The notes below the pieces were generated by a model. The model was not told where the DNA came from. It was given only the letters and a program-made list of their open reading frames with translations, and ran no database searches. Shown here one piece after another: positions 31,115 through 64,000 of a stretch of 64,000 nt of DNA; position 1 is the stretch's first letter, and every line of letters begins with the position of its first letter. Origin of the DNA: Gordius sp. MW1 (lineage: Eukaryota > Nematomorpha > Gordioida > Gordea > Gordiidae); the NCBI GenBank assembly GCA_964036665.1, contig OZ038531.1, positions 14,756,168-14,820,167 on the forward strand. The letters run 5' to 3'. The translations under genes and the position numbers were made by a program.

Positions 31115-31479
31115 GTTAAAAATGTTAATAATTGTAAAAATAATAAATTGATAATTCCCGATAAGACGAGATCTTCTATCTTTTAAGAGGCGGCAAAAAA
31201 TTCTTTTAAAAGTAGCACTTCGAGACACCTAAAACTATATATGCCAAATCGACATTTAGAACCCTTATATAAGGCTATAATGTTTTTAATATACTTGGCT
31301 TCTTTGCTTTTCCATCATTTTAAATTTTTAGGTTATTGATAAAACTGGAAAAACAGTGATATTTTGCAAAAGTAACTTGAAGAAATAAATTTTAAAATTT
31401 GTTTCTAAATTTGCGAATGATTATATATAGTTACATTTGTTTATTTTTAAGCAGAAGCCCGGGGCCGTTCAGGTCTCTA
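31115..31479. mobile_element. Truncated copy of the TAGAGACC hAT family
   Basis: This segment aligns by eye with about 61,980-62,740 of the full-length element at 61735-62737. Shared stretches include CTTTTAAGAGGCGGC, ACTATATATGCCAAAT and TTGGCTTCTTTGCTTTTCCA. It ends in AGAAGCCC...CAGGTCTCTA, the right terminus of that family. The left half is missing, and no duplicate of the following TGCCACAT is seen on the left. Confidence 0.7.
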
Positions 31480-35345: not shown

Positions 35346-36561
35346 CGAACGTTGTAAAATAGCGAAGTCAAATGTCAATCAAGCGTCATATATTATTTTC
35401 TATCATTAAAATTGTTTAAATAGTTCTTATTGGCCGATAAAAACGTCAATCATCAATAATATTATGCTATTTAACATTACAATTTTAATCATATTCTATA
35501 TCATAAATAAATTAAGATCCTTGCCCCCCCCCCTATTTTTTACCCTCTTTCTCACCAGAGGAGAGGGGGGTTCTGCCACCCACCCCCTATTTTTTATCCT
35601 ATTTATTACCAGAGAGGGGGGGGTCTTTTGCCCCTTATTTTTTATTTCTCTTTTTCACTGGTGCCCCCCCCCTGGTAAAAAAAAGGGTAAAATATAAGGG
35701 GGGGGGCAAAACACCCCCCCCCCCCCCCCATCTCCCCTCTGGTGAGAAAGAGGGTAAAAAATAAGGGGGGGGCAAATCACTCCCCTCCCCCCTGGGGAGA
35801 AAGAGGGTAAAAAAATAAGAGGGGGGGCAAATTCCCCCCCCTTCCCCCTGGTGAGAAAGAGGGTAAAAAAATAAGGGGGGGGGGCAAAACACCCCCCCCC
35901 CCCCCCCATCTTCCCTCTGGTGAGAAAGAGGGTAAAAAATAAGGTGGGGGGGGGGCAAATCACCCCCCTCCCCTCTGGTGAGAAAAGGGTAAAAAAAATG
36001 GGGGGGGGGGGAAGCACCCCCCCCCCCCTGGTAAGAAAGAGGGTAAAAAATAATGGGGGGGGCAAATCACCCCCCTCCGCCCTGGTGAGAAAGAGGGTAA
36101 AAAATAAGGAGGGGGGGGGCAAATCCCCCCTCCCCCTGGTGAGAAAGAGAGTAAAAAATAAGGTGGGGGGCAAATCACCCCCCTCCCCTCTGGTGAGAAA
36201 AAGGGTAAAATATAATGGGGGGGGGGGCAAATCATCCCCTTCCCCTGGTGAGAAAGAGGATAAATTAATATTTAATACAACACAATTAGCATCTACCTTA
36301 CAAAATGTTATTAAGTTCAATATAATTATATCAATTTAAATGTATTAGTTATCTATCTCTAATTCAAATATGGGATAATTGACGTTCAAATTTAAAAACG
36401 CTATGGTATAACAATGGGATCGTCAAAAGTAACAATGCATTTTCCCAATCCCCACCCAATCCCCTGCTAGTAAAAAAAACGTGATAAACGTCAAAACTCA
36501 TTATTTCGTCTTTTTAACCAATAGCAATTCGTATAAGACGTTCGCTATTTTACAATCTTCG
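35346..36561. mobile_element. Inverted-repeat element with internal minisatellite
   Basis: The sequence TTGTAAAATAGCGAA at about 35,352-35,366 has its complement TTCGCTATTTTACAA at 36,541-36,555, and similarity continues inward (TTATTGGCCGAT...AACGTCAAT versus complement ATTGGTTAAAAAGACG...TTTTGACGTT). The body between the arms is the G/C-tract minisatellite. I could not fix exact ends or a target duplication, so the superfamily is open. Confidence 0.6.
35520..36265. repeat. Minisatellite of C/G homopolymers with an orientation switch
   Basis: About a dozen 50-80 bp units carry CCCCC, then CTGGTGAGAAAGAGGGTAAA, AATAAGGGGGGG and CAAATCACCCC. Left of about 35,660 the unit is on one strand (TTTACCCTCTTTCTCACCAG); to the right it is on the other, so the array contains an inversion point. 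G and C runs of 7-17 alternate, which suits hairpin and G-quadruplex formation. Long open frames here (up to about 220 codons) come from repetition and encode only Pro/Phe/Gly-rich strings. Confidence 0.93.
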
Positions 36562-37384: not shown

Positions 37385-38962
37385 TGGATTTCGAATCGAA
37401 TATGTTTGGTATTCGATTCGAATTCTAAAATTTTATTAGGAAAATATTCTATTCTAGATATGTCGAATTTAAAATAAGGATTCGAATATTCAAAAAAAAC
37501 TTAAGATTTGTATTCGATTCAACATTTTTCAAGTTTCTTTAATTACTAAATTGTTAATACATTTCAAAGATTTATTTATAAAAATGCAAAGATAGAATAT
37601 TAAAATATTAAAGGCGAAAAGGATAAAATACCTATATCTCTGAAGCAATGAAGAATTTTTTTAGTCAGTTTTTGATTTATATAAAAAAGACTTTTACAAT
37701 GATAGCAGGTAGTATTTTAAGGGAAATGGTCCCAAGCCATTAACTTATTTTTCTTCTTCAGTAAAGTTGTCTAAATTGGACATAGTCTCTAATTAAAATT
37801 TTTGGTTAGATGGCATTAATTAAAGTTTACTTTGTTAAATTATAAATTTGTAATGTTATGTATATAGCATAAGATCTCGTTGCATATAGAAACATATTAA
37901 GACTTTATAAACAAGGTTCAACAAGAGAAATTGACCAGCAAACTGTTTGCCTTGGAGAGTTTTTCGTCGTGAACACGAGTATATTTTTAATTTTTTCCCT
38001 ATACGTCAAGTTTTGGAAATATTTGCTGTTAAAGTTGCGAAAAGCAGCAATAAACGTTAATAACTTGCAAATTAATGGGTAAAATTTTATTTTAATAAAT
38101 TTGATTTATAAATAAAGGGGAGAGGAATCCATTAAATTCTTGTTAATTTAATAAACATCAGATAGTTATAATTTGGAAAATTATAAAAACAGCCTTTATT
38201 TATAATTTAAACACAAATAAAAATTTAATTGATTATGTAACGGACTTTTAGAGGGCCTTACGTATATCTTGGCCCTGAGTCCGTTAAGTTATATTACTGA
38301 CCGCCCAAACCCAGCCATAAACTAATGGAGCTAGGGTTTTTAATGGATCTCTCTCCTTTATTTATAAATTAAATTTATTAAACTAAAATTCTACCGATTA
38401 ATTGATATTTATTGGCGAAGCAATTTTGTCAGCAGATATTTAAAAAAACTTTACTTATAGGAAAAGACTAAAAATATATTTGTGTTCACCGTAAAAACTC
38501 TACAAGAATCGGCAAACAATTTGCCAGTTGAATATAAGTCCATTATTGCTGAAAAGTTTATTTACGTTAAAGTATAATGTAATAATAAAAGTTCAAAAAT
38601 AATATTAAAATTAAATAAAGATTGACCTAAAATGTAGCAATTGGAAAATTTTTGTAATCTAATGTCTATATTATATGTAGAAAACAATTTTTAATACATT
38701 TTGTGTATGCTTATAAAATCTAAATTCAATGAAGGAAAATAACTGATTTGCGTATAGAAAATACAGCTTAATTAGATTCGTCGCGTCTTTTAAAAAACAA
38801 TTTAAAGTAAATAATTTTTTTAAATCCTTTGTAAAGATTCGATTCAAATTTTCAAGTCTCAATAAATATTCGATTCGAAATTTAGACATAAGGATTCTTA
38901 TTCAATCTCAAATCAAATCACGAATATAAAATCGAATTGAATCTCGAAAATTTCCCAGAGAC
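37385..38962. mobile_element. Foldback-type (hAT-like) element with long inverted arms
   Basis: The outer ends carry CTCTGGATTTCGAATCGAAT (left) and the complement of a CTCTGGGAAA...ATTCAATTCGAT run (right). Deeper inverted segments pair as well: 37,933-37,996 (AAACTGTTTGCC...GAGAGTTTTTCG...GTGAACAC) with 38,462-38,530 (GTGTTCACCG...AAAACTCT...GGCAAACAATTTG). The core, about 38,150-38,330, resembles part of the hAT element at 61735-62737. No 8-bp duplication was found, so the exact ends are uncertain. Confidence 0.6.
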
Positions 38963-40076: not shown

Positions 40077-43000
40077 GTGAAATTAAATTTTAAATATAAG
40101 TTTTACAGTTATTTTTTCCCCAAAATACCATAAAAATATTTGTTTTCATGTATATAAGGGCAGCAGACCTTGACCATATCATGTTTAGGATGGGAATTTT
40201 ATCTGTTTTGTATTCTAAATTTACTAAAGGTATATAATTGTTTCATCACATGATAATGTTCTATGAGGTCAAATAAAAATATTTTGTTATATATAGAAGT
40301 TTCTGGAGTAATGGTTACTGCATCACATAACTCCGAATGTGATAATGGAATTAAAATATTTGGCAGATTAGGTGAAATGATGGATGGATCTTGGGAGAGT
40401 TTAGCCACAAGTTTGGCAAATGCAAAGTATTCTGGACTATTTCAAAACATTGATTTCCTTGTTTTATTTTTTATTTATTCTTATAGAGATGAATCTGTTG
40501 TAAACATAACTCAGACAATTATTGAAACAAACAATATAGACATTAATGGACAAAGTAAAGTGTTTATAGCACATGATACAAGGTAAGTATGTAACATTTA
40601 ATTTTCTGGACACCTGATCATATTTATAACTTTAAATTATGATTAAAATTTATGTTTATCTTAATATAATTAAATGTAGTCACTCTTTTTTTTGGGGGGG
40701 GGGGGGAGGGTGGTGGGTGAGGGTAATATTAATATAAACTAGTTTAAAAATAAATATTATATAAATTTAGTGTATTACTATACAAAAAATTTATAACTTG
40801 TTTACACAATAAGGCCTGCAAAAATTGATATGTTACTTATTATTTTCTATCTTTTAGAAAAAGTTGTAGAGAACTCGTGAAGGCCTGCTTAGAAGGGATA
40901 ATTGCCATCAAGGGTGAATACACAAACTATGGTAAATATCATTAAATTAAATAAAGTAAGCTGAATTATGTAAGTTATGCATAAATAGTTCGCCAATTAA
41001 ATTAAACAATAACAAACGCTGATTTTTAATTTAAGGCATGTTTTTGATTTCTATTGTCTACTTTTAAATACGTATTAAAGTAAGTTTAATGCATTTCTAA
41101 GCTTTATAATAATGAATGATACAGCAACTAAGTGCCAAAGATTACCATGCCTATATAATTGGTTAAATAGTTACAAACATTTCAAGATTATTTATATAAA
41201 CGGGCTTAACACCATTAGTCGAGCTAGTTAATCATGATCGTTACTTACTCATACAGACAAAAATACTAATTTAGGCCTCCCCCCTCATGAACAAAATGCT
41301 GACCTATTTTTTCACTATACCATTGAAAATTTATATCATTAAAACACAATAATTTATATTCTTAGTTAAGGGTTATTTTTGGACATTGAACCTGATAATA
41401 TTATAAAAAAATACTAGAGAGCATGGGCGTAGCCAGGGGGGGGGGGCTGCCCCCCTTAATTTACGAGAAAAAATGTGGGTCCCAATATTTATTTCCTTGT
41501 AAACATTAGCGGTAATTCAAATGAATGACAAATCGTCAGGACGAAGTGTCAAATTGTTTAGCAAGTTGCTTATATTATCATTCATCTCTATTTTTTGTTT
41601 AATTTCGAACTGGTAAATTATCAAATTATAGTTTGGGTTACTAAATGTTTAGAATCAATGAATTAAACTATATGATTTTATATTATTTCATACAAAAAAA
41701 CGTATTATACTTAGCTTTTATTTTCCCTATCCTATAATTTACCAGCAAATCTAGGTTGACATTCAAAACTGAGATTTACACTAATTGGCGACATGTTTAT
41801 ATTAATTGAAAAAAGAAAAAACTATAAAAAATCATTTTTTTTAGTCTGAGAGCATTTTTAATTAATAACAATAAGGGCGTATCTCACGAATGAGGGGAGA
41901 CTTTTTGCACCCTAAATCCATCAAACTATTTTTAAATGCGAATTTTCTAAAATTATTTTACGTTTAGCTTACTTGCTATTATAACATATATTTACATTAG
42001 TGTTTTGTAAAAAGGGCTGGGTTTAGTTTGGTTGACCTTTGGTTTTAGTCGATTAAACATATGCAGACGTTTTTGGTGTGTTTTTCTTAGTCGCATAAAC
42101 AGACCAAAGATTTTTTGGTCAAACCCTGGTCTGTTAATGTTTAGTCGTCTGAAACCAAAGGTCGACCAAACAAAACCCAGCCCTTTTTACAACACTAATC
42201 CACCCACACGAAACTAAAAGGGCTTTTGACTACACCACAAATCCATTACATGGTAATGTGCGAAAATACGGGACACAGTTATGGGTTTCCATCGGAAGAG
42301 GGCTACTTTCAAAAGCTTACACGAGCTTTCTCCCGTCTTTGTAAAGTATGACTAACAATATTGTAAATATCACATAATAAGATAGTCAGTCTTCTACTTA
42401 GCTTTCAATTATATAATTCAATTCAAATATTCTCGTCGGGGTCAATTGAAAATTCAACAATGTTTCGAATTATATAATACTTAAATAAAACGGTTTTATT
42501 TAGGGTGTAAAGTTTATATATTTATTCATGATAAAATTGATGAAATTAGAGCTTAATTAATTCAAAATATATTATTCATTGCTTAAATTTAAATCAATTT
42601 ACCTAATATGAATGGGATTGGCAATAAAGTTTGTTGCTACATTGTTTATAACAACCAATTTTTACTTATGGTAGGTAGCTCAACTCCAATTTTTATAGCT
42701 CTAACATTATTTTCATCATGGATGGTTTACTAAAGTATTTTTAAATAAATTAAAAAATAAACAACTTATCAGCTTCTCACTTTAAAAAATTAGTTTTATA
42801 ACTGATATAAAAACATTTGAAGGCAATTATGAGTTGAGCCTTAATCTACATTCCGAGCATATACCTATTGCACTTGTAACTCGAGTGAAAATTAAGTTTG
42901 CGCAAAATCTTAGCTTCATCAATATTATGGGAGAATTAATAGAAATAGTCAATTATTGCCAATTAAAACAAATATTAACAATGCTTTAAGTCTAATTTTC

Positions 43001-46000: not shown

Positions 46001-49000
46001 TTTAACCATACAAAAAAAATTGTTTTGCAAAATGGAATTTCTACGGCCCGAGCCCGGCCCGACACTTTTTGTATAATTTTGCCCGAGCCATTTTTTTTAC
46101 TCAGGCCCGACCCGAGCCCGAGGCCAGATTAAAATTTAGTTTTTCGGTCGGGCTTTGAACGGCCCGTGAAGGCCTCTATTTGCAAGACATTTTAGCAGAT
46201 TAATTGTTAATTTTACATCAATTTTTAGGGGTCAATTGGGAGATGGGGGATTACAAGCCATACCAGCAATATGCTTCATTAGATGGGGATGGAGATAGAA
46301 TCGTTTTTTATTACCTAGACTCAGGTGCTGAATTTATTTGCTACAGTACAGGTCATCGTGTTATACGATCTACTGCTAAAAATGTTGTTTTTTGTAGTAT
46401 GTAATTTTAGGTATAACATTAAAAAAAGTATTATCGAATTTTAATTATTTGAGTTTAAGTTAACGTAAATTTACGGCTTAAAATTCTTTTTTTCAATGAT
46501 TTTTATTAAAACTTTAGAGCGAAAGTTTCATCTACTCGATGGTGATAAAATAGCCATTTTGGTAAGGACATCAATTTATGCTTGCATCTTATTAATATTT
46601 TAACTCTTTCACACGCATGTTTACACAATTCTATATACCTTATTACTATATTGAAGATTGCCAAGTTTATAAAAGAAACACTTATGGCGGCGAATTTAGG
46701 TAAAAAGCTCAAAATGAGTGTGGTACAGACAGCCTATGCGAATGGGAGTTCAACTGAGTATCTTGCCCAAAATTTAGTAAAATTTTTAAAAAGCATTAAA
46801 ATAATATATTCACTAGACAATTTTCTGTTGTTTTTCGTTACAAATTTATAAAAGTTTATGCCATCTATATAAAAAATAGTTTAATAATTTTTTTAAATGA
46901 AGCACTAAAATAAGTTTAATAGATGTAGCCATAAGCGGGCAACGCCCTCCCCCCTCCCACCCGTGACAAATTCTTTGTATTAGAGCATTGCTTATATATG
47001 TATTATTCGATCAAATTACTATACGTATAGAATTTGTCGACACATTAGAATAAACCCAATCCTCTGAGTCCTCAAAAAAATAAATAAATTTAAATTTATA
47101 AAATTTAATAACAATAGTTTCTACATTCTTACTAAATTTGAAGGGAACGACCGAAAATGGGGTTTTATGATCCATTTGACCTGAACCGCCCCTATATTAT
47201 CTTTTGTATTCTCTAACCTTTTCTTAGTTAGATCTAAGTTCATTTATTCAAACTTCAGCATTAATTTTTTAAAATTATAATTGGGAACTATCATACACTA
47301 GGATCACATTATCCTCGGTCTCCTTCACGTTTAAAAGTTTAAAAGTGCTTCTCGTAGACCTTTTTCCGACAATTATTGTATATTGATCATTATTAAATAA
47401 CGTATTATTTTGTTATTCCTATTTTACGTCAATAATTTTAAAAAAGCTAATTTGATTTTTTGTATGAGTGTAGGTTTGTTATTTTTTAATAAGCTTTATT
47501 TTAGGAAATCGATGTTTATTGCACACCTACCGGAGTTAAGCATTTACATAAAAAAGCTCAAGAATTAGATGTGGGAATTTATTTTGAAGCCAATGGCCAT
47601 GGAACCGTAAATATTTGAATTTGCACCTTAAATTATTATTTAAGGTTTTGTACAGTGCCAAATTTTTAGAGGAAATAAAAGACATTTTAAAAGATCCAAA
47701 TCAGGAGTTAACTAATATTTGACAATATTTTGAGCAATGTTTTTAATATAAACTATGTATTTTACCACAATCATGGTTGCAATTGTTAACAAATTTTGTG
47801 TTCATTAGAGAAACTGTAATACAAGCAGCATACAAATTGCTAAATTTTAGCGATTTAACGAATCAAGTAATCAAACAGAGAAAAGATTATTACTTTTAAA
47901 TTTTTATTTTACAATGACATGTTTGGCTAATAGTTGTTTTAGGCGGTTGGGGATGCATTATCAGATTTACTATTGGTCGAAACTATCTTATTGTTCTACC
48001 AATGGAGCATCGTTCAATGGGATAATTTGTATAGTGATCTGCCTAATCGACAAATGAAAATAAAGGTTCTTCATAATAATACTCATTTGTGTTAGTGATA
48101 TACTTAATATTTTTGAATATTTCATATACGTGTGAACCATTAAACTTTATTAAGGTGAAAGACAGGAATATAGTTAAAACGACTTTTGATGAAAAACGAT
48201 GTATTTCGCCCTCTGGATTGCAATTGGAAATAGATCAACTTGTAGCTAAAATTAGGCGCGGTAGAGCTTTTATCAGGTTTAGTTTTTTATTGACTTGCCT
48301 CCCGTTTGCTTTTATAATAATATTTTTTAAATACATATTAGCAATTTTACGAGCATTATTGATTATTACGTGAGAAGCCTTTAATATTTTTTCCGTCATT
48401 TGAGCAGATCATAACAATGTTCTTAAGCAGGGACATTATATATATTTATATATTATATAATAACATAATTTTCCATAGTGTAATTATCTATCTATAATAA
48501 ATTTTATAAGAATACGCGATAGTTATTTTATAAAAAAAATTGAAGGGTTTTTATCACATTCATTCAATATTTGAAGCATTTCCCCCCTTTCAAACGTCTT
48601 TTTTGTTTTAATAAAGTCAGACACTCCTGATTATAACTATTGTAAGGATCCCAACATCATGATTCTGTTTGTCCTTTATTTTAACCAAGTCTGTCCCCCT
48701 TTATCATCCGGTTTGGTAGCCATCTCTGTATACTCACCGTACTTTACTATATAATGACGTTTTTGCAGCTCTTGTTTTTTGATATATTACTTATTTCGAT
48801 GAACTTTCTACTATTCCACCTTCCCTCTTTGGTAAATTCTATTTATATATAGAATATGATTATGCCTGGTGTTTTGACCTAGCCATGGTTTATAGAAATT
48901 TTTTCGTGTTGTTTTCACAAAATATATCAATTAGTCTTTTAAAAAAATTATTATACTTAGCAATTGTCCTGTCTAGTCCGCGAGACAGTTTGTCCCTATT

Positions 49001-52000: not shown

Positions 52001-55000
52001 GACCAACGAAGTTTTACCTATAATTTGCAACTTATGCAAATCAGAGGTTAGATTTGTTTGGAATTTTCTGCCCAAACACTGCCCGATTCAATTTTTTTAC
52101 TTCATTGCCCGCCCGAGCCCTTCTTGTCCCCCGGGCTCGCCCGAATCATTAGAGCTGCCCGGCCCGAAATATTAAATTTGCCCATTAGGCTCGAATGCGA
52201 TCTCAGATTCTTTCAACCAAAAATAAGCATTAATATAATTTCATATTGATTAAAACAAATATAGCAATATTTTATAAATAAAATTTTCTATATTAGTTTA
52301 AAGTCGAATGAGAAAGGTGAAAAAATGGTAGTATTTGGTCTTTCTAACAAATTTGGCAAGAGTTTCTCAATAATATTATCCGCTCATAGGTCACAAGAAT
52401 TTAATAGGCTGATTGCTAATGCATTTAGGTATAAACATGTTAGAACATTTTCAAATCATATGGATGCAGCCGATGTCCATGAAAATATATATGTAATTTT
52501 TTAGTTAAGTTTAAAGTATACATATATTGTAAATAATCTTACAATAAAAATTAGACTGCCCTTTTGGGCAATACCGTTGATGTACCTACCCAATAAATAA
52601 ACTTTTTCTTCTTCTTCCTTATCAGTTATTTGGTCCCACAGTCATGGGGTTTGCTTTGATTAGTTTCTTCCATCTTGACGGCACTACTTTATCGACTTAC
52701 CCTTTCCACGTGACACGGGGTCGTCCTCTTCCTCTCTTGCCCGGTACCTCCATGTCCAGTATTTTTGGATTAACGCCATTCGTGTCCCTTCTTAGTATAT
52801 GCCCATACCACCTTAGCCGATTTTCGTTAATCATGTCCGCCATAGGTTGAATACCCATTTATCATGAGCAGGTCATTCGTCATATGGTCGAGCTTAGTAT
52901 ATATACCCCAAGCTTCACCGTATCATTCTCATCTCTGTAGCATGTAATAGCTTTCCTTCCATGGTGTTTAATGCCCATGTTTCACTTCCATAGACTAACA
53001 CTGGTCTTATGATGAATTTGTAAGCTTTGCTCTTCAACCATATTGGCATTTACTTGTCGCACATTACACAGGATATACTTCGCCATTTAAACCATCCTTT
53101 TTGGATCTGGGCATTGCGCAACCTCCCTCTTGATGTAGCATCGAGCCGAGGTATGTAAACTTGTCTACTTTTGGGTACCTTAGATGGTCATCTAGCTATG
53201 GGCTGCCTTACCGTTTTCCATATACGTTTTTCGATCGTTGACCTTAAAACCATATCCAGCTAAGCGCTTTGACCACTTTTCGGCTTCTTCGAATACTTTC
53301 TCCCTTGTTTCCTCGCATAGTACTAAATCATCGGCATATAGCATACATCATGTTTAATGAATAAAATAAGTTCAATTAATCGAATTCTCTTCTTTGTTAA
53401 TACCTATTTTTTTGATTAAAAACAATAATTTATCAATAGAATTTAAATGCAATTTATGGGGTACATTTTTTATTCAAAGCAAAAGAAAGGTATGGAAATA
53501 AGCAACAGCTTAGCGATAGCGAATAGTGATAAGAGAATAAAAAAGACGAATTGCGAAAGTATTGTTAAACCAAATTTTATTTGTTAAAAAAATTAAATGA
53601 AATTTAACACTTGCATGTGTGTGAATTTGCATGGGCGTAGCCAGATTTTGGATTAGGGGGGGGGGCGAAACGTTGAAAAGTTCAATTAGGGGGGGGGGGG
53701 GGCAAACATAAATTTTTTTAATTTTTAAGGCTTTTCGCATTAAAAACTTTTTTTCGCCGTTTAGGAGGGGAGCGGCCGCCCCCCCTGGCTACGCCCATGT
53801 GAATTTGGCTTATGTATTATGTCTAGACGGCACATGTAAATTACGAACCATTAAGGGCTACATAAATATAAATATTTCAATCCTTTCCAAGAAGGTAGCT
53901 AGGGACTTGATAGAAATAGAGGGTTCCGGTTATTAATAATAACTTGGGGACGGGTGGCAGTCAAGTTTCTTAAATTTTTAGCATTTTATTCAATCAAAAA
54001 AAAAGTAACATAATAATATATCTAAAAAATTTAATTAAGCTCGACTTAGCCAAATCTTGTCATCGTGCCCGCCCGGGCCCGTTCGAAAATAAAAATTTAC
54101 GTCGTGGGCAGGTTCTGGCAGCGGGCCGGACATTCAGGTCTCTAATGCAAATATTTAGACTGTGTCATGTTCAGCCTAAGTGTTGTTTCTATATTTCGAT
54201 TATTTTGGCCTCTCCCTTTAAATCGCTAGATAGCGTTTTAATATGATGACTTTCTAAAAATGTAAGGAGCTAGAATACGGATGAAAAATAATTTAGTTGA
54301 TAAATTGAACCTAGCCTTAGATTGTCTTACTTTGACTTGATCAAAACTATGTTTAATATAAATTCATTTTGCTCACAAACTTTTAGAAGAAACAGGATTT
54401 CTTACTTATAATATTAAACTGAATGATCATTCCCGAGTTGGCATGATTAAGCTAACACTTTTTTGTTATTATTTTTTAAAATTGTGATTTATTTTATATT
54501 ACACTGAATGATCACTAAAATATATATTGTAATGTATATGTTAATAGGCCTTCTGGAACTGAGGATATAGTGAGAATTTATGCCGAAGCAGAAACCCAAG
54601 TATTCCTTTTATTTATATATAATTATTAATAACATGAACAATAATATATAAAAACACATAGGCAATTTTTTTACGAAAAAAATAATGCATGGGGAGGTGT
54701 ATAAAGAGACTCTTTTTGTTTAACAACTAGTATTTTAACGGTTTTTATATGTTAATTTTGACGCTATAGGGAGGTAATAATGTGTGATTATGAGTCGTAA
54801 TTTACAAGTTACTTTGAAAGGGGTAATGATGATTATCAGACTTTTATATAAAAAAGGCAGTTAGTGATTGACTGGCTATGCAATTCAACGCATTGGAGTT
54901 ATAGGAAAACTTATTTAGTAAAGCAAGGTTTATTAGAAATTTAGATATTGAATCCCATAAATCATTTATGTTAGTGCAAATCAATGTCCTGCAAATTCAA

Positions 55001-55230
55001 TTTGTGGCCCAAACATCTTCCAAAATAAAAGACTTTTAATTTCAACCTAAGTGTGTTTTAACTGACTTTAAAATTAACTACCTTTTTTTTTATCTAACAT
55101 AAAATTTAATTATAGCTACTTAAGTGTTTTATAATGATCTTAGGAATTGGCAAATAATCTGGCATACAAAGTTAGCTTGATAACATACAAAACTGCTGGT
55201 GGTCAAGGAGAACTACCCACACTGCTATGA
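39976..55230 (+). CDS. PGM3: Phosphoacetylglucosamine mutase (17 exons, spliced)
   Basis: The product isomerises N-acetylglucosamine-6-phosphate to the 1-phosphate in the cytosol, a step of UDP-GlcNAc synthesis needed for chitin, N-glycans and GPI anchors. Joined exons: 39976-40076, 40159-40229, 40297-40426, 40487-40582, 40858-40931, 43177-43422, 45540-45582, 46229-46324, 46518-46561, 46657-46776, 47505-47606, 47645-47706, 47809-47866, 47943-48065, 48155-48276, 54548-54599, 55144-55230. Every intron is GT-AG and phases match, except across the 40932-43176 gap. Motifs seen: GTAGFRTK (about residue 27), catalytic loop TASHN with Ser67, metal loop [25 protein letters not shown], and RPSGTED split by the 6.3-kb intron. 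The parts found give about 541 codons, near the family length of about 540. The segment matching family motif TTPQLHY is not identified, so one exon is missing or highly diverged. No stop or frameshift was seen in the exons. Confidence 0.95.
40159..40229 (+). CDS. PGM3: PGM3 exon 2
   Basis: Encodes [20 protein letters not shown] and follows an 82-nt intron ending TATATAAG. The phase completes the Lys codon of exon 1. The donor is AAAG/GTATAT. DHxMFRMGxL is a conserved family stretch. Confidence 0.93.
40297..40426 (+). CDS. PGM3: PGM3 exon 3 (active-site Ser loop)
   Basis: Begins [20 protein letters not shown]. The Ser in TASHN is the residue phosphorylated during catalysis in this family. 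It ends LATSLANAK, with donor AA/GTATTC. The preceding intron is 67 nt. Confidence 0.95.
40487..40582 (+). CDS. PGM3: PGM3 exon 4
   Basis: Encodes [20 protein letters not shown] through KVFIAHDTR. The 60-nt intron before it (40,427-40,486) is open in frame, so unspliced sequence reads through. Removing it restores a gap-free match to the family (LANAKDESVVNI). The donor is AG/GTAAGT, a perfect consensus. Confidence 0.93.
40692..40733. repeat. G-rich tract in PGM3 intron 4
   Basis: A T run followed by about 14 G and then GAGGGTGGTGGGTGAGGG. It is a possible G-quadruplex on the coding strand of the transcript. Confidence 0.6.
40858..40931 (+). CDS. PGM3: PGM3 exon 5
   Basis: Encodes [20 protein letters not shown] and YTNYG after the acceptor CTTTTAG. 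The donor is ATG/GTAAAT, leaving one base of a Gly codon. The following part of the family, LLTTPQLHY onward, is not obvious in the next 2.2 kb. Confidence 0.9.
41422..41460. mobile_element. CATGGGCGTAGCCAGG-family MITE fragment
   Basis: The left terminus CATGGGCGTAGCCAGGGG is followed by a G run and GCTGCCCCCC. The right terminus is missing. It lies within the PGM3 intron after exon 5. Confidence 0.6.
41998..42197. mobile_element. Palindromic MITE in PGM3 intron
   Basis: The two halves are near-perfect inverted copies: TAGTGTTTTGTAAAAAGGGC at the left and GCCCTTTTTACAACACTA at the right, with GGTTTTAGTCGATTAAACAT inside matched by the complement of ATGTTTAGTCGTCTGAAACC. Total length is about 200 bp. 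The termini look hAT-like, but the flanking 8-mers (ATTTACAT, ATCCACCC) do not match. A 61-codon open frame across it is a by-product. Confidence 0.8.
42675..42724 (+). CDS. PGM3: Candidate missing PGM3 exon (tentative)
   Basis: After acceptor ATGGTAG this 50-nt stretch reads [17 protein letters not shown] to donor ATG/GTTTAC. It completes the Gly codon left by exon 5 and ends in phase 0, as the next exon requires. STP sits where the family has TTPQLHY, but the remaining similarity is weak. An alternative is a 53-nt stretch starting after GAAG near 42,818 and ending at CTT/GTAACT near 42,870, also phase-compatible ([18 protein letters not shown]). Transcript data would decide. Confidence 0.3.
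43177..43422 (+). CDS. PGM3: PGM3 exon 6
   Basis: Begins after TTCTAG with [20 protein letters not shown] and continues [16 protein letters not shown], matching the conserved DCANG-type block. It continues [14 protein letters not shown] and ends GSGLNEN with donor AAC/GTTAGT. About 20 residues between NDNTK and LNEN ([20 protein letters not shown]) are extra relative to the family. Confidence 0.93.
43423..45539. other. PGM3 intron 6, no further features
   Basis: This 2.1-kb AT-rich intron has no recognisable gene or element ends. A few short open frames, such as the 67-codon one at 44,197-44,400, have no family signature. Confidence 0.5.
45540..45582 (+). CDS. PGM3: PGM3 exon 7
   Basis: This 43-nt exon encodes [14 protein letters not shown] plus one base of Gly, after acceptor TTATAG and before GTAATA. 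CGADxVKxxQKPP is highly conserved in the family, so this short exon is secure. Confidence 0.95.
46020..46193. mobile_element. Short GGCCCG-rich hAT-family element in PGM3 intron 7
   Basis: About 170 bp of GGCCCGAGCCCGGCCC-type repeats around an AT-rich core, ending GAAGGCCTCTA. TTTGCAAA on the left and TTTGCAAG on the right are a 7/8 match and may be the target duplication. It belongs with the GGCCCG-rich elements at 52042-54144 and 61735-62737. Confidence 0.55.
46229..46324 (+). CDS. PGM3: PGM3 exon 8 (metal-binding loop)
   Basis: Encodes [20 protein letters not shown] and [18 protein letters not shown] is the metal-binding loop that holds the active-site magnesium. The donor TCAG/GTGCTG leaves one base, completed by exon 9. 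Confidence 0.95.
46518..46561 (+). CDS. PGM3: PGM3 exon 9
   Basis: This 44-nt exon encodes [15 protein letters not shown]. It follows acceptor ACTTTAG and precedes GTAAGG. FHLxDGDKIA is conserved in the family. Confidence 0.95.
46657..46776 (+). CDS. PGM3: PGM3 exon 10
   Basis: Encodes [20 protein letters not shown] and [31 protein letters not shown] is a family signature. It is preceded by a 95-nt intron; the donor is TTA/GTAAAA. Confidence 0.95.
47505..47606 (+). CDS. PGM3: PGM3 exon 11 (sugar-binding loop)
   Basis: Encodes [20 protein letters not shown] and [20 protein letters not shown] is the loop that contacts the sugar hydroxyls in this enzyme family. The donor is ACC/GTAAAT. Confidence 0.96.
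47645..47706 (+). CDS. PGM3: PGM3 exon 12
   Basis: Encodes [20 protein letters not shown]. It is separated from exon 11 by an intron of only 38 nt (47,607-47,644) that contains an in-frame stop and must therefore be removed. The donor is GA/GTTAAC. Confidence 0.9.
47809..47866 (+). CDS. PGM3: PGM3 exon 13
   Basis: Encodes [19 protein letters not shown] after acceptor CATTAG. The first base completes a Glu codon from exon 12. The donor is CAA/GTAATC. Confidence 0.92.
47943..48065 (+). CDS. PGM3: PGM3 exon 14
   Basis: Encodes [20 protein letters not shown] then [21 protein letters not shown]. GDALSDxLxVE and YxDLPNRQ are conserved family stretches. The exon is 123 nt, phase 0 at both ends. 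Confidence 0.95.
48155..48276 (+). CDS. PGM3: PGM3 exon 15
   Basis: Encodes [20 protein letters not shown] and [20 protein letters not shown], ending with two bases of the Arg codon that begins RPSGTED. The donor is AG/GTTTAG. The frame runs on past the donor, but without family similarity. Confidence 0.94.
48277..49230. other. Start of 6.3-kb PGM3 intron 15
   Basis: AT-rich sequence without recognisable coding or element ends. Intron 15 continues to 54,547 and holds the elements listed separately between 49,230 and 54,144. Confidence 0.5.
49528..49692. mobile_element. CATGGGCGTAGCCAGG-family MITE, copy 3
   Basis: The left end ATGGGCGTAGCCAGG and right end CCTGGCTACCCCCAT are inverted around an AT-rich core with GGGGGAGGG runs. 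The interior GGATTAGGG-GGGGCAAA...TTCAATTAGGGGGGAGGG matches copy 53630-53799. The flanking 8-mers ATATTTTT and GTATTTTA match at 6 of 8. Confidence 0.75.
49750..50869. mobile_element. hAT-like element, 1,120 bp, TSD GGCTGCCT
   Basis: The perfect 12-bp terminal inverted repeat TAGAGAACTGCA is flanked by identical GGCTGCCT at 49,742-49,749 and 50,870-50,877. Both ends carry several 37-38 bp units of CCCGGACCCGACCCG plus GAAATCATTTTCAAATTTTC. These subterminal units point the same way at both ends; only the last 12 bp are inverted. No transposase remnant was found, so it is non-autonomous. Confidence 0.93.
51130..51930 (-). pseudogene. RTE-type retrotransposon fragment: endonuclease and linker, decayed
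   Basis: On the minus strand this aligns with the copy at about 60,705-61,480. Both share GATGTGGGTGAAGATTG-type sequence, the segment corresponding to YAPQIGCIE-E, and the segment before RPLV-D. The 66-codon frame at 51,346-51,546 is a surviving piece. Numerous stops and frameshifts are present. It lies in PGM3 intron 15, opposite to the gene. Confidence 0.75.
52613..53345 (-). pseudogene. RTE-type retrotransposon 3' part (RT thumb and C-terminus), decayed
   Basis: This minus-strand sequence aligns with 59217-59927, including the block for NENRLRWxxxMxRR and GKRGRGRP that typifies the C-terminal end of RTE/craniofacial-development-protein-2-like elements. The 3' end carries a GAA-type tail (complement of CTTCTTCTTCC at about 52,609-52,619). 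It is 5' truncated. Confidence 0.75.
53630..53799. mobile_element. CATGGGCGTAGCCAGG-family MITE, copy 4, TSD TGAATTTG
   Basis: The termini CATGGGCGTAGCCAG and CTGGCTACGCCCATG are inverted, with identical 8-bp flanks TGAATTTG at 53,622-53,629 and 53,800-53,807. G runs of 10-16 lie inside. It is the best-preserved copy in the window and ties the family to an 8-bp-duplicating (hAT-like) transposase. Confidence 0.92.
54548..54599 (+). CDS. PGM3: PGM3 exon 16 (phosphate-binding loop)
   Basis: This 52-nt exon encodes (R)[17 protein letters not shown] after acceptor TTAATAG and before donor CAA/GTATTC. RPSGTED is the phosphate-binding motif of the enzyme, and its Arg codon is split across the intron. 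A second copy of this exon lies at 63477-63528. Confidence 0.96.
55144..55230 (+). CDS. PGM3: PGM3 exon 17 (last coding exon)
   Basis: Encodes [20 protein letters not shown] then QGELPTLL and TGA. It follows acceptor ATCTTAG. The C-terminus matches the usual family end in position. Confidence 0.93.
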   Translation, partial: ELANNLAYKVSLITYKTAGGQGELPTLL

Positions 55231-55486: not shown

Positions 55487-55492
55487 AATAAA
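55487..55492 (+). terminator. PGM3: Poly(A) signal AATAAA of PGM3
   Basis: An AATAAA hexamer lies 257 nt past the stop codon, followed by T-rich DNA. It is the first AATAAA after the stop and lies before the convergent minus-strand gene. Confidence 0.6.
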
Positions 55493-55719: not shown

Positions 55720-55952
55720 TTAAGTCATTAAAAGTATTACCACAACATAATGGTTGCATAAATCTCCAACACAACAATCAACACATTCCCAATCATCAAA
55801 CCATTCATAGGTGCATTTTTGAACAGGCTTTCTTAATGCAAAATTATACCCATCATAATGAGCTTTATTTGCTTGTTTACAATTCTCATAGTTGTCACAT
55901 TGTTTACTAATATAATATTGTTTGTGAGTTTGAGGAGCCCAATGTGGGATAA
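55720..55952 (-). CDS. Three-finger gene, last exon
   Basis: After acceptor TTTCAG, it encodes IPHWAPQTHKQYYISKQCDN through KPVQKCTYEWFDDWEC and CCVGDLCN, ending with TAA at 55,722-55,720. The stop lies 490 bp from the stop of PGM3, so the two genes converge. Confidence 0.85.
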
Positions 55953-56160
55953 CTGAAATTAGATATTGATAGTGAGCATTTATTGACAAATTGCAAATAA
56001 AATAAATGATTTAGGCTAAAATGACACATACGTCCATATTTAATTGTTGTTCTACAGGCGTTGTGGGTGAGGTTTCTACAATTTTCTACGCTTTTTATGC
56101 ATTTATCATCGTTGCTATCTTGTTCTGAACACACATAACACTGTATAGTTGCGTTTATTT
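55720..56160 (-). CDS. Three-finger (Ly6/Quiver-like) secreted or GPI-linked protein, 5' incomplete
   Basis: Two minus-strand exons were found, 56160-56032 and 55952-55720, joined by a 79-nt GT-AG intron (GTATGT...TTTCAG) with matching phase. The translation starts INATIQCYVCSEQDSNDDKC, has eleven to twelve cysteines, and ends WECVDCCVGDLCNHYVV then ILLMT and stop. CYVC at the start and CC-GDLCN at the end are the frame of the Ly6/uPAR three-finger fold, most like the invertebrate Quiver/Sleepless type. These often sit on the cell surface by a GPI anchor and modulate channels or receptors; the actual role here is unknown. The hydrophobic tail after CN is only about 10 residues, so GPI anchoring is doubtful. 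A signal-peptide exon must lie at higher coordinates; the ATG at 56,248 gives the wrong phase with its nearest donor. Confidence 0.8.
56032..56160 (-). CDS. Three-finger gene, first identified exon
   Basis: After acceptor TTTATAG, it encodes INATIQCYVCSEQDSNDDKC then IKSVENCRNLTHNACRTTIK YG. It starts with two bases of a split codon, so an upstream exon ending in phase 1 is needed. The donor is GGAC/GTATGT. Confidence 0.8.
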
Positions 56161-56429
56161 CTATAAATTACAATTTAATCAAGATATTGTATGCCTACTC
56201 GTTACAGAGTAAAACAAAAAATTCACAATTATAACAGACACCCAACATTTTATTAGCATACCTGTAAAGGTAAATAATGATATAGGGGCTAATGATCGAA
56301 AACATGCGCTTTGAATATGTAGAATAGAATTTGTTTCCAATAATGGTTATTTTGGATTGATAAAACGAGAGGGTGGAAATGGCTTTAGATATTTCGGTCG
56401 TCCAGCAACCAGTATCAAGAATTACTACA

Positions 56430-57233
56430 GAAGTGAATTTAAAAAAAAGATCATCACAACAGTTTACCATAAACCTACTGATTCTTATCAGTATATACCA
56501 TAACACAGCCACTCCCCCTCTTCATTTAAAATAAACACCTTTAGAATGATGATTAAAAGAGCAATATCTCATTGCTCTCGAGAGTGTGATAGGATTGTTA
56601 ACTTGACAAGATAACACAAAGATTTTTATACCTCAACTACCCACTTGACCTGCTGACAAACATTAAAAATAAAGTAATATCATGACTGAATCATTCCACA
56701 ATAACAAAATCTAAAATAAACCATTATATATCCATACCTTTCCACCGAAGTCTTAATAATAGTTTCCTCAATGAATTAAATAAAATTTTAAACAAACATA
56801 ATATAGATAATTTTAAGTTTCCTCGAAAAACATCTTCCAATCTATTTGCACTCATAAAACCTATTAATAACATAACCGATAAAAATTATATCTCTAATTT
56901 AATATATAAAATCTCCTGCGCCGATTGCAACCATTTTTACGTGGGAGAAACAAAGAGAACCTTAGCTGAAAGAATTAAAGAACACAAAGCCCCGCTGACA
57001 CGATGCGCGACCCACTCCGCCGTGGCAGAACACTCTCTACAAAACCAACATACCATCGCCGGGAAAACCCGACTGTCCTCTACCGATCTCAGTATAACAA
57101 AGAAAGAAAATTCATCGTAAGCGTTCTAATCGACCGCCTCAAGCCCCAAATCAATGCCCAACCAGGACAATTCAGAAATTACAAGACCCACACCTATCTC
57201 TATAATTACCTGTCACCATTATACACACCTTAA
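56430..57233 (+). pseudogene. Penelope-like RT tail plus GIY-YIG endonuclease, frameshifted
   Basis: Near 56,435-56,500 the plus strand reads KKKIITTVYHKPTDSYQYI, the YxKPTD block of Penelope-type reverse transcriptases. A frame open from 56,686 to 57,120 encodes NLIYKISCADCNHFYVGETK then RTLAERIKEHK, a GIY-YIG nuclease core with the conserved YVGET and RxxEH residues, ending AVAEHSLQNQHTI. The frame breaks near 57,103; the remaining residues (ERKFIVSVLIDRLKPQINAQ PG) are in the next frame to a stop at 57,233. Further stops upstream show it is inactive. Confidence 0.82.
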
Positions 57234-58755: not shown

Positions 58756-59216
58756 AATAAATTTTTATTGTTATTTTCCACTATTGAGTATTTTTTGTTT
58801 TAGCATTTGAAAAATCATAATTTTATAGGTTTCTAAGAATACAGAGATCCTAAGTAATTTTCTTTTTCTATGCAGCTATAAGAAGATTCCATTAAATTGA
58901 TTTAATTAATTATAGTAGCTAATGTTAAGCGTGTTATAACATAATAATCACGAAGTTACCTTAAAAAACTATACCAGTTAGGTTTCAGAATAGTGACAGA
59001 AATATGTAATGTAACAACTAATGCGACGTTTTGTTTAAAACATAATGATTACTAAAATACAGAAAAAATAAATTGTTAATATTTAAGTTTTTAAAAAGCG
59101 AGGAAAATGTTCCAGAATTAAAGTAAAAAGCAAACACTCTTTTAGTGTATTATTTATTTAATTATGCAAAAAATATCAGAAATCATTTTCCCCTTGAATT
59201 CTTCTTATTTTTTTTA

Positions 59217-59927
59217 TCAAGTATTTGGTCCCACAGCCGTAGGGTTTGTTTTGATGAGTTTGTTCCATCTTGATCGGTTCAGTGTCATGTCTTGATCAAT
59301 TTTCTTAAGCTTCATAACTAGGCCGACTTGCCTTTTCCGCCTGACAGTAGGTCGTCCTCTTCCTCTCTTCCCCGGTAACTCCACCTTCATATATTTTCGA
59401 TTTATATCATTCGTCTCCCTTCTTAACATCTGCTTCACCCACCTTAGCCGATTTTCGTTAATCAAGTCCGCCATAGGTTGAATACCCATTTATGTCATTA
59501 GAATCCAGCGTATCATTCTCCGTGGCTTACAATAGCTTTTTCGGTGGTGTTTAATGCCTATGTTTTACTTCGATAGAGTAACACCGGTCTTACGATGGAT
59601 TTAAGATCTTTGCTCTTTAAACATATTGGAATTTTCTTGTCGCATATTACACCGGATATACTTTGCAATTTAAGCCATATTGAATCCGGGCATTGACTTC
59701 TGTTGCGCAACCTCGATCTTAATGTAACATAGAGCCGAGGTAGGTAAGCTTGTCTACTTTTGGGTACTTTAGATAATCATCTAGCAATGGGGGCTTGGAA
59801 CGTTTTTAATATATACCATTTTTAAACCGTTCACCTTTAAATATCCAGTTAAGCGCTTTGACCAATTGTTAGCTTCTTCGAATACTATATGCTTTGTCTC
59901 TTCGCATAGTACTATATAGTGATGGGA
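59217..59927 (-). pseudogene. RTE-type retrotransposon 3' part, 5' truncated
   Basis: The open piece 59,489-59,217 encodes [20 protein letters not shown] then MLRRETNDINRKYMKVELPG and KRGRGRPTVRR. This is the C-terminal end of RTE-clade reverse transcriptase proteins (often annotated as craniofacial development protein 2-like). Upstream, decayed sequence up to 59,920 includes RPVLLYRSKTWALNTTEKAI-like residues of the RT thumb. The same part occurs at 52613-53345 in the same orientation, but the 3' flanks differ, so the insertions are independent. Confidence 0.82.
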
Positions 59928-60286: not shown

Positions 60287-61500
60287 ATGACGGTCCCAAG
60301 TCCGTGTGCAAAAGGTGGAGGGTTGGCGTCAGGTCGGAAACCGGCTATGAAAACCAACTCCAAAACTATGATAGTTTCAAGCAAGATTTTTCAAGAAAAG
60401 GCTAGGGGGTCCTCCACAAACGACGCGCACTGCATACCCCGCCCGTGCAATGTGAAAAATACACTAGGGTTACTACCCAACTCACAACGAAGGCGGTTAA
60501 GGAAATTAGTGTTGAAAGAACGCGAATAACGTGCTGGAATGTGGGAACGTTGACGGGGAAGAGCATCGAAGTGGCACAAATGCTGAAAAGAAGAAAGGTA
60601 CACATCGCTTGCCTACAAGAGACGAGGTGGAACGGAACGAAAGCCCGGGAATTAGGAGAAAGATACAAGCTTTATACAGTGGGTCACCAAATCGTAGAAA
60701 CGGGGTCGGTATCGTTCTAAGCGAATCGTTCAAGGACAAGGTGGTGGAAGTCAAGCGTTGTTCCGACAGGCGAATGTGGGTGAAGATTGCAAGGGGGCCT
60801 CCTAACCGTTATGTGCGCGTATGCTCCCCAAATTGGGTGTATAGAATCGGAGAAAGACATATTCTTTGATTCATTGGAAAAAGAAATACAAGGAATCCGA
60901 CAGGAAGAAAGGCTAAATAATGGGGCCGATTTCAACGCTCACGTAGGAAAAGATCGCCTCGGGTATGAACGCAATCATGGAGGCTATGAGCATGGTCTGA
61001 AGAACAAAGAAGGGGAAAAACTTCTCCAAGTATCCTTAGCATATGACATGGCGATCGTTAACACACATTTTAAAAAACGCGAAGATCATATTGTCCTATA
61101 GAAGTGGGAAGCATTTTAGTCAAATTGACTATTTGCTCATACGGCGAAAGGACTTATGGAGTATCAAGGATTGCAAAGTAATCCCGGGATAAGAAATCGC
61201 CAGGCAACATCGTCCCCTTGTTATGGATCTTGACAGAAGAGTATTTATCGAAAGAAGAAAGGTCTATGAGCCTCGAATTAGATACGAAAGTCTAAAAGAT
61301 ACGTCGACAAACGAAAAATACCATCAAAAAGCCTCCTCACTCTTGGGTGCGAGGAAGTTGCAAAGGGACGTAGACGAGGATTTGGCTATCTAAGGACATA
61401 AAGGAAACAGCGATTTGTGTTCTAGGACAGACCAAAGGAGGCAAAGCTATGAATAGGGAACGATGGTGGTGGGATCAATCGGTTGGGGATTTTATCGAAA
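60287..61500 (+). pseudogene. RTE-type retrotransposon 5' part: APE endonuclease, frameshifted
   Basis: Three plus-strand frames carry consecutive pieces of an apurinic-type endonuclease. They are ISVERTRITCWNVGTLTGKS and IACLQETRWNGTKA (60,445-60,717); RRNGVGIVLSESFKDKVVEV and MWVKIA (60,700-60,800); then AYAPQIGCIESEKDIFFDSL and GADFNAHVGKDR (60,787-61,101). SQIDYLLIRRKDLWSIKDCK follows near 61,110. WN, QETRW, YAPQ, DFNAHVG and SQIDY are the expected catalytic-core motifs; GDFN is GADFN here. Frameshifts near 60,700, 60,800 and 61,090 show it is inactive. The RT domain is missing: the copy ends at about 61,500. Confidence 0.88.
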
Positions 61501-61734: not shown

Positions 61735-62737
61735 TAGAGACCCGCAACGGGACTGTTTAGGTTACTCGGCCTGCTCGTAGTAAAACTTTTTAAGCCCGGG
61801 CCCGGCCCGGGTCCGTCAAATATTAGATTGTAGCCCCGGGCCCGGCCCGCTAATTTTGTACAAAGTCCGAGCCCGGCCCGGGCCCGTATAAATTTCTTTT
61901 TTTGATTTTGATTTTACCGAAATAGTAAACAAATATAGGTGTTAAAAAAGTTGACTATGTAAAAATAATTAATTATCACTATTTTCCGTTCTATCTTATA
62001 AGAGGCGACTAGAAAAAAAGATTTTAATAGTGGGTGGCACTGTAGTTGAAATACATAAAACCATATATGCCAAATAAACTTTTTAAAACCTTATTAATTG
62101 TTACAATATTTTTATTAAGGTTATTTGGCTTCTTTGCTTTTCCACTAATGAAAAGCAATAATATTTTATAAAGGAAACTTGAAGAAAGTATAACTTTTTA
62201 AATATTTTTTATTTTTTTAATGACTATATTCATAAAAACTTAAATGATATTAAATTAATTTACTTTTAAAGTATGGACATCTGCTCCACATCCAAAATTT
62301 CTTGATCTAAAAAACATTTTGCCCTATCTAAATCATTACTGCCCCCCTCAAATTTAAATCTTGCATATCATGGGATTACGTGACTTAAAATGCGCGTTGA
62401 GATATTGATGAATGATTTAAGTAAGATGGAAATATATTTAACTTTCCATCTTAACTTAATAAACATCGGTTAATTATACTTTAGAACATTATAAAAATGA
62501 ATCTTTGTTTATACTAAATCTAATTGATTTTGTAACGGGCTTTTAACGGGCCTTACATATATCTAGGCCCGGCCCGAGCCCGCTAGGTTATATTCCGGCC
62601 CGTTTAGGCCCAGCCCGTTGTTTTTTTTTAAAACAGAAGCCCGTCCAAGCCCGGTCCGTCCAAGCCCGGTCCGTCCAAGCCCGGCCCGAGGGCCGGGCTT
62701 TTAGGCTCGTCCGCGGGCCGGGCCGTGTAGGTCCCTA
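61735..62737. mobile_element. hAT-like element, 1,003 bp, TSD GCTGTTAC
   Basis: The ends TAGAGACCCG (left) and complement TAGGGACCTA (right) lie between identical GCTGTTAC copies at 61,727-61,734 and 62,738-62,745. Subterminal DNA is made of GGCCCGGGCCC repeats (61,795-61,890 and 62,565-62,730). The AT-rich core has no transposase. It is the full-length reference for the truncated copy at 31115-31479 and the core of 37385-38962. Confidence 0.92.
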
Positions 62738-62984
62738 GCTGTTACAACTTTAGAAATAAGATAAGTAGATATTTCAAACGTTTTTTTTTGTTTGAACCGT
62801 TAAAAATATATATTATAAAGTTAAATTTTTAGCTTTAAATGATTAACCGAATAAATTATAACGAGTGATAACTTTTTTATTTTTAAACTTATCCTAGTTG
62901 TAAATACGAGTAATAACAATCTAATGCATTTTATATAAAGATGGTGAAATAATTTTCAAAAATATATTTCTCAAAAATTTTATT

Positions 62985-63122
62985 TAAAAAATCGGGTCGG
63001 GCTTGGGTCGGGCCAAAAATTAAAAAAATTTTCGGGCTCGGGCCGGCCTCTGGCAAAATAAAAATTAAGAAGTCCGGCTTGGGCCGGGCTCGGGCAGAAA
63101 TAATTTTATTTTGCAGGACTCT
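62985..63122. mobile_element. Right end of a GGCCCG-rich hAT-family element
   Basis: GGGTCGGGCTTGGGTCGGG, GGGCTCGGGCCGGCC and GGGCCGGGCTCGGGC repeats end in TTGCAGGACTCTA. The left end is not identified. It abuts the start of the duplicated PGM3 region. Confidence 0.55.
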
Positions 63123-63123
63123 A

Positions 63124-63570
63124 GCTGTCTGTCATGCCCAGAAGTGTTGTTTCTATGTTCGACCTCCCTTTGTATCGTCAAAGAGTGTTTAAACATGATG
63201 ACTCCTTTTAATGTAAGGGGCTAGAAAACAGATAAAAATAATATATTTGATAAATTTAACCTGGTTTTACTTGATTAAAACCATTTTTGAAATAAATTTA
63301 TTTTGCTCACAAACCTTTAGAGAACACGGGTTACTTGATATAATATTAAACTTAATGACCATTCCTGAGGTGGCATGATTAAGCTAAATATATTTTGTTA
63401 TTAATTTTTATTTTGATTTATTTTAAATTACGCTGAACTATTGTTAAAATTTATATTGTAATGAATATACTAATAGGCCTTCTGGAACTGAGGATATAGT
63501 GAGAATTTATGCAGAAGCAGAAACCCAAGTATTCCTTTTATGTATATAATATATTAATAACATGAATAAT
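63124..63570 (+). repeat. Duplicate of the PGM3 exon 16 region
   Basis: This aligns with about 54,158-54,645. Shared blocks include AAGTGTTGTTTCTAT, AGTTGATAAATT-type, TTTATTTTGCTCACAAAC, TGGCATGATTAAGCTAA, and the complete exon with its splice sites. By eye the intronic parts differ at roughly a fifth to a quarter of positions with indels, while the exon differs at one base. Confidence 0.92.
63477..63528 (+). CDS. PGM3: Second copy of PGM3 exon 16
   Basis: These 52 nt encode [17 protein letters not shown], identical in protein to exon 16. The single difference (GCA for GCC, Ala) is silent. Acceptor TAATAG and donor CAAG/GTATTC are intact. It lies 8.9 kb downstream, past the gene's own last exon and poly(A) signal. 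Because 52 is not divisible by 3, using both copies in one transcript would break the frame. Whether it belongs to a second gene copy, an alternative 3' end or a relic cannot be settled here. Confidence 0.75.
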
Positions 63571-64000
63571 CTATATATATAAAGTAAAGTGTATGTATGT
63601 ATGTGTGTATGTATGTCGGGCTAAATTCTGAAATTACCGGCCCGATTCGCGCGAAAATTTAGCCATAGATGCCCAGGGCGGCCAGGGGTAAAATAGCTTT
63701 TTCAGAATCCTAAAATTCTTTTTAGTTTTAAGATTATCGGACATTTCACGGCCAGTTTCATTTATAGCATCATATACAATAATATCGTCATACATACAAA
63801 GCTAAAGTATTCTTGAATGATTATTTTTAGTATTGTTTTAAGTGTATCCTTATTTGCACAACAACTCCTAGCTTTGGGGAACGTACCTTTCCATTTACCC
63901 CGTCTCCAAGGGAAAGTACCTTTCCAACAACCTTTTGTCACCTACTGCCATCGTCTGAGGCTGTTGAAACTATGTTGTTCCCCGACATTGCAACGCACTA
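63569..64000 (+). mobile_element. Possible Helitron-like insertion, runs off the window
   Basis: Similarity to the intron after exon 16 stops at AACATGAATAA. The inserted DNA starts TCTATATATATAAAG, followed by a GTATGTATGTGTGTATGTATG tract, a start often seen in non-autonomous Helitrons that insert between A and T. Near the window end is CCCCGACATTGCAACGCACTA. No helicase sequence or full 3' hairpin is visible. Confidence 0.35.

What the first reader, a model, noticed from the sequence alone, without database searches (positions are those of the whole stretch)
63477..63528. Duplicated PGM3 exon, silent change only, in diverged surroundings
The copy 8.9 kb downstream of exon 16 has 51 of 52 bases identical, the only change silent, with both splice sites kept, while the duplicated intron on its left differs at roughly a fifth or more of positions. 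That contrast points to purifying selection on the second copy. It lies beyond the normal last exon and poly(A) signal. Exon length 52 forbids using both, so mutually exclusive 3' ends, or a second gene copy continuing past the window, are possible.
Basis: partly seen in the sequence, partly recalled or inferred. Interest (0 to 1): 0.8.

Follow-up and report, generated by a model that had tools for sequence, protein, structure and literature searches.

The report
Stray duplicated PGM3 exon fragment
A piece of the gene PGM3 carrying one short exon was copied about 9 kb downstream among repeats; the exon looks well preserved, but the evidence that it is used is weak and an ordinary leftover fragment is the likeliest reading.

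Summary
The 52-base exon at 54548-54599 recurs at 63477-63528 with 51 of 52 bases identical, one silent change and both splice sites kept. The copy is part of a block of about 460-500 bp (54155-54654 against 63122-63583); outside the exon, aligned bases are 84-86% identical with 14-22 gap events.

The case for purifying selection is weaker than it looks, because the parent exon is itself constrained. For a neutral copy, zero amino-acid changes has P = 0.02-0.05 (0.20 at the right flank's rate); adding no indels, intact splice sites and at most one silent change gives 0.002-0.005 (0.03). The exon does not differ significantly from its right flank (P = 0.11).

A second same-strand gene copy is contradicted: none of the 12 upstream coding pieces tested, nor exon 17, has a second full match. 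The 472 bases to the right hold no exon 17, and homology to the parent ends near 63583. Best reading: a non-functional gene fragment in a repeat-rich stretch, perhaps with short gene conversion. Use as an alternative 3' exon stays possible; no RNA data were available.

The parts
48161..48276 (+). 3' part of PGM3 exon 15, ends ...ATCAG before GT
   Evidence: Frame and donor read; joined 15-16-17 peptide matches phosphoacetylglucosamine mutase 1wjw at 5e-24
54136..54144 (+). motif AGGTCTCTA at the end of a GC-rich stretch just left of the parent block
54155..54654 (+). parent block: end of intron 15, exon 16, first 55 bases of intron 16
54548..54599 (+). PGM3 exon 16, encodes (R)[17 protein letters not shown] of domain IV
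   Evidence: Pfam PGM_PMM_IV 24.4 bits against cut-off 23.1 for the open frame 54519-54626
55144..55230 (+). PGM3 last coding exon (17) with stop codon
55487..55492 (+). AATAAA, probable poly(A) signal
   Evidence: role inferred
63115..63123 (+). motif AGGACTCTA at the end of a GC-rich stretch, at the left border of the copied block; 12 bases out of register with the parent's motif
63122..63583 (+). copied block, flanks 84-86% identical to parent
63477..63528 (+). exon 16 copy (16b), 51/52 identical, splice sites kept
   Evidence: Pfam PGM_PMM_IV 24.1 bits for the open frame 63448-63546

Best explanation
A segment of PGM3 of about 460-500 bp (end of intron 15, exon 16, start of intron 16) was duplicated 8.9 kb downstream into a repeat-rich stretch. 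Shown: the duplication, its limits inside the window, and repeats beside it. Inferred: that a repeat-associated event such as template switching made it, that the copy is unused and drifting, and that its exon still looks intact because the parent exon is held by selection (halving the visible divergence) and because 52 bases is a small target.
For: One partial block; none of the other 13 coding pieces tested has a second full match. Homology stops near 63583: the rest of intron 16 and exon 17 are not found in 63584-64000. Stretches left of the copy match other repeats in the window (62405-62615 to 38101-38316, 61941-62229 to 31115-31426), and a GC-rich stretch ending in the motif AGGNCYCTA lies at the left of both blocks. 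P of 0.02-0.05 for no amino-acid change in a neutral copy, 0.20 with the right flank's rate; right flank not significantly below the exon.
Against: The stricter joint counts are lower: 0.010-0.014 with no indels, 0.002-0.005 with no indels, intact splice sites and at most one silent change (0.048 and 0.033 with the right flank's rate). The 71-column quiet stretch is centred on the exon, P = 0.001 by shuffling. Frame and splice signals are intact. For the repeat mechanism: the two motifs are 12 bases out of register and the motif is only mildly enriched, 5 found against 1.17 expected, reached in 1 of 100 shuffles.
Confidence: 0.68

Rival explanations
1. Exon 16b is a used alternative 3' exon: exon 15 splices over exons 16 and 17 to 16b, then to an unseen terminal exon past 64000, or the 16b donor is read through to a short tail (VFLLCI, stop). 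Purifying selection keeps it.
For: No amino-acid change, frame and splice sites kept; more alike than the left flank, Fisher P = 0.003; joint neutral probability 0.002-0.005. Homologous 3'-terminal exons with separate poly(A) sites are described (PMC3228551, passages).
Against: Needs a 15,200-base intron past a normal last exon and poly(A) signal; no exon 17 copy and no AATAAA in the 472 bases available; P = 0.02-0.05 on amino-acid changes alone, 0.20 with the right flank's rate.
Confidence: 0.12
2. Short gene conversion between the two exons, in either direction, reset a tract of about 70 bases, so the exon looks younger than its flanks without selection on the copy.
For: 71-column tract with one difference reaching 6 bases before and 13 after the exon; a conversion tract need not stop at exon ends.
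Against: The tract follows the exon fairly closely; nothing else marks a conversion event, and none was tested directly beyond the run-length shuffle.
Confidence: 0.17
3. A second PGM3 gene copy continues past the window.
For: Only that the window ends 472 bases after the exon.
Against: None of the 12 upstream coding pieces tested has a second full match in the window; the weak extra hits are short, E 0.012 or worse. Not every exon was represented among the pieces. Homology ends near 63583.
Confidence: 0.02

Closest known systems
Tandem exon duplications and unannotated duplicate exons (PMC9013439, passages including the abstract)
   Same: A single exon duplicated near its parent; that paper cites a 2002 study with about 10% of animal genes holding tandemly duplicated exons.
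   Different: Here the copy lies beyond the last exon and poly(A) signal, among repeats, without transcript support.
Homologous 3'-terminal exons with multiple poly(A) sites (PMC3228551, passages)
   Same: Similar exons towards the 3' end that could not both be used.
   Different: There candidates for a last exon end in a stop codon; 16b is an internal-type exon with a donor site.
Transposon-associated duplication of gene fragments (Pack-TIRs, PMC8277862, abstract and outline; Helitron capture, search listing and abstract starts only)
   Same: A gene fragment copied into a place rich in mobile elements.
   Different: No terminal inverted repeats, target-site duplication or Helitron ends were shown here.

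Membership tests
Mutually exclusive exon pair | same length, splice-site type, frame and sequence similarity | tested here: met
   52 bases each, AG/GT kept, same peptide
Mutually exclusive exon pair | copies are neighbours, surrounded by further exons of the gene | tested here: not met
   Exon 17 with its stop lies between the copies; no exon 17 copy in the 472 bases to the right; sequence past 64000 not seen
Mutually exclusive exon pair | transcripts contain exactly one of the two | not testable with these tools
   No RNA-seq available
Complete tandem gene duplicate | other exons duplicated in order | tested here: not met
   13 of 14 coding pieces tested have one full match in the window
Partial gene duplication (gene fragment) | one bounded block homologous to part of a gene, introns included | tested here: met
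   Block 63122-63583. Right limit clear, 167 of 200 shuffles as high beyond it; left limit less clear, 12 of 200
Transposon-mediated fragment capture | element ends and target-site duplication enclosing the fragment | tested here: inconclusive
   Similar motif at both left borders but 12 bases out of register; no right end identified; a general repeat scan showed no obvious target-site duplication, and no dedicated search was made

The most novel reading that the evidence does not exclude
Exon 16b is a functional alternative 3' exon giving a PGM3 isoform that keeps the RPSGTED loop of domain IV but swaps the C-terminal segment encoded by exon 17.
Probability: 0.1. Interest if true: 0.5.

Novelty: new member of a known kind. 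Interest (0 to 1): 0.15.

Why it matters
Mostly as a caution: a duplicated exon can look better kept than its introns even when the copy is dead, because the parent exon is constrained. If the copy were used, it would give an enzyme of sugar-nucleotide synthesis a second C-terminus.

Tried and rejected
Naive binomial test treating exon and flank alike (P = 0.001-0.004): set aside because it ignores constraint on the parent exon. Second gene copy: contradicted. Exon 17 or more of intron 16 to the right: local score 20 against shuffle mean 21.5, 167 of 200 shuffles as high. Further homology to the left (53501-54040 against 62301-62985): score 28 against mean 22.9, 12 of 200 shuffles as high, not clear. 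RNA families at gathering threshold in 31000-64000 and tRNAs in the window: none. Relatives in viral contigs: 8 stretches matched a pattern, none confirmed. My impression that 63817-63999 is a decayed Helitron helicase found no match in Pfam or, for 63831-63998, in PDB sequences; it stays a recollection. On checking, I dropped an earlier idea that the repeat motifs at the two left borders are in register: they are 12 bases apart relative to the shared TGTCATG. Species not identified; the tools offered no eukaryotic genome collection, so the ancestral state of the silent change is unknown. In one search one line ('left100 placeholder') used input counts that were not measured; it is not used in this report. 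Paper searches: 'phosphoacetylglucosamine mutase' with 'exon duplication' gave 0 papers; a search on partial duplications gave 12, of which the 8 listed showed nothing on this case by title and abstract start.

Full report
Observation. The exon at 54548-54599 and its copy at 63477-63528 differ at one of 52 bases, a silent GCC/GCA change (54584 against 63513), and both keep AG before and GT after. The exon encodes [17 protein letters not shown] after a split arginine codon. Open frames holding either copy pass the Pfam PGM_PMM_IV cut-off (24.4 and 24.1 against 23.1 bits). The joined exon 15-16-17 peptide matches solved phosphoacetylglucosamine mutases (best 1wjw, 5e-24), and the frame at 40257-40586 does too (2dka, 3.7e-10). 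Among other frames, 40257-40583 passes PGM_PMM_I, 47505-47615 and 46549-46848 pass AMG1_III; 43177-43449 matches AMG1_II below its cut-off; 46204-46401, 48080-48370, 55144-55227 and 42199-42348 match no family of this enzyme. That the RPSGTED loop binds phosphate is recalled.

Extent. The copy is part of one block, 54155-54654 against 63122-63583. Over five gap settings, flank identity is 84-86% of aligned bases; the left side is 83-85% with 12-19 gap events, the right side 89-93% with 2-3. By bins of about 50 bases the left flank ranges from 74% to 92%, the exon is 98%, the right flank 89%. The longest run with at most one difference is 71 columns (P = 0.001 by shuffling); the longest run with none is 42 columns (P = 0.03). 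The exon is more alike than the left flank (Fisher P = 0.003), not significantly more than the right (P = 0.11).

Selection test. The parent exon is constrained, so amino-acid changes are expected only on the copy's side, at about half the pairwise neutral divergence. The exon has about 39.7 non-synonymous and 12.3 synonymous sites. Four flank counts were used: all flanks with low gap penalties, all with high, left only, right only. Expected amino-acid changes in a neutral copy: 3.0, 3.5, 3.9, 1.9. P of none: 0.052, 0.033, 0.024, 0.195. P of at most one substitution of any kind: 0.049, 0.027, 0.017, 0.257. None and no indel: 0.014, 0.013, 0.010, 0.048. With splice sites intact as well: 0.011, 0.010, 0.007, 0.042. 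With at most one silent change as well: 0.005, 0.004, 0.002, 0.033 (all). The model is Poisson with equal rates on both sides, and the exon was singled out after the fact. I read this as suggestive, not as proof; low silent divergence would fit conversion or a locally low rate as well as selection.

Possible use. Exon 15 to 16b keeps the frame; reading on past the 16b donor adds VFLLCI and a stop; exon 16 joined to 16b stops after AFWN; exon 15 to 17 breaks the frame. So 16b could serve only as a replacement for 16. It would need a 15,200-base intron running past exon 17 and the AATAAA at 55487, then a terminal exon beyond the window or a poly(A) site after 63528. The 472 bases available hold no AATAAA (variants at 63548, 63578 and 63583) and no exon 17 copy.

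Second gene copy. Fourteen coding pieces (12 upstream, exon 16, exon 17; not every exon) were searched against the whole window; only exon 16 has a second full match, and the other second hits are short, at E of 0.012 or worse. A same-strand gene copy would need its earlier exons between 55231 and 63476, where no full match lies.

Origin. To the left of both blocks lies a GC-rich stretch ending in the motif AGGNCYCTA. The motif occurs five times in the window, all on the + strand (31471, 46170, 54136, 62729, 63115), against 1.17 expected; 1 of 100 shuffles reached five. The 60 bases before it are 37-77% G+C. The two border motifs stand 27 and 15 bases before a shared TGTCATG, so they are not in register. 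The copy's neighbourhood holds repeats shared with other parts of the window, a GIY-YIG ORF at 56686-57117 and a weak endonuclease-like match at 60406-60717, below Pfam's cut-off. A repeat-associated local duplication is plausible, but the mechanism is not shown.

Verdict. An accurate observation of a partial gene duplication. The functional reading is possible but weakly supported. Papers seen: PMC9013439, PMC3228551 and PMC5740500 (passages), PMC8277862 (abstract and outline); others only as search listings with abstract starts.

Noticed in passing
1-31042: Almost half the window is a tandem satellite of 343-345 bp units, with 298 bp unit variants at intervals; it ends about 9 kb before the first PGM3 piece I searched (39985).
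   Followed up: partly
31471, 46170, 54136, 62729, 63115 (+): Motif AGGNCYCTA, mostly at the end of GC-rich stretches, five times and all in one orientation; perhaps the end of an interspersed repeat.
   Followed up: partly
35667-36264: Minisatellite of C- and G-run units, about 54-71 bp.
   Followed up: no
55720-56167 (-): Two cysteine-containing open frames just past PGM3 on the other strand; 55907-56167 matches the TOLIP (three-finger) model weakly, below its cut-off.
   Followed up: partly
56686-57117 (+): GIY-YIG domain ORF above the Pfam cut-off; perhaps a Penelope-like element (recalled).
   Followed up: partly
52603-53328 and 59199-59917: Another direct repeat pair, 72% identical; the minus-strand ORF at 59217-59489 looks like a retrotransposon end (recalled; no Pfam match).
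   Followed up: no
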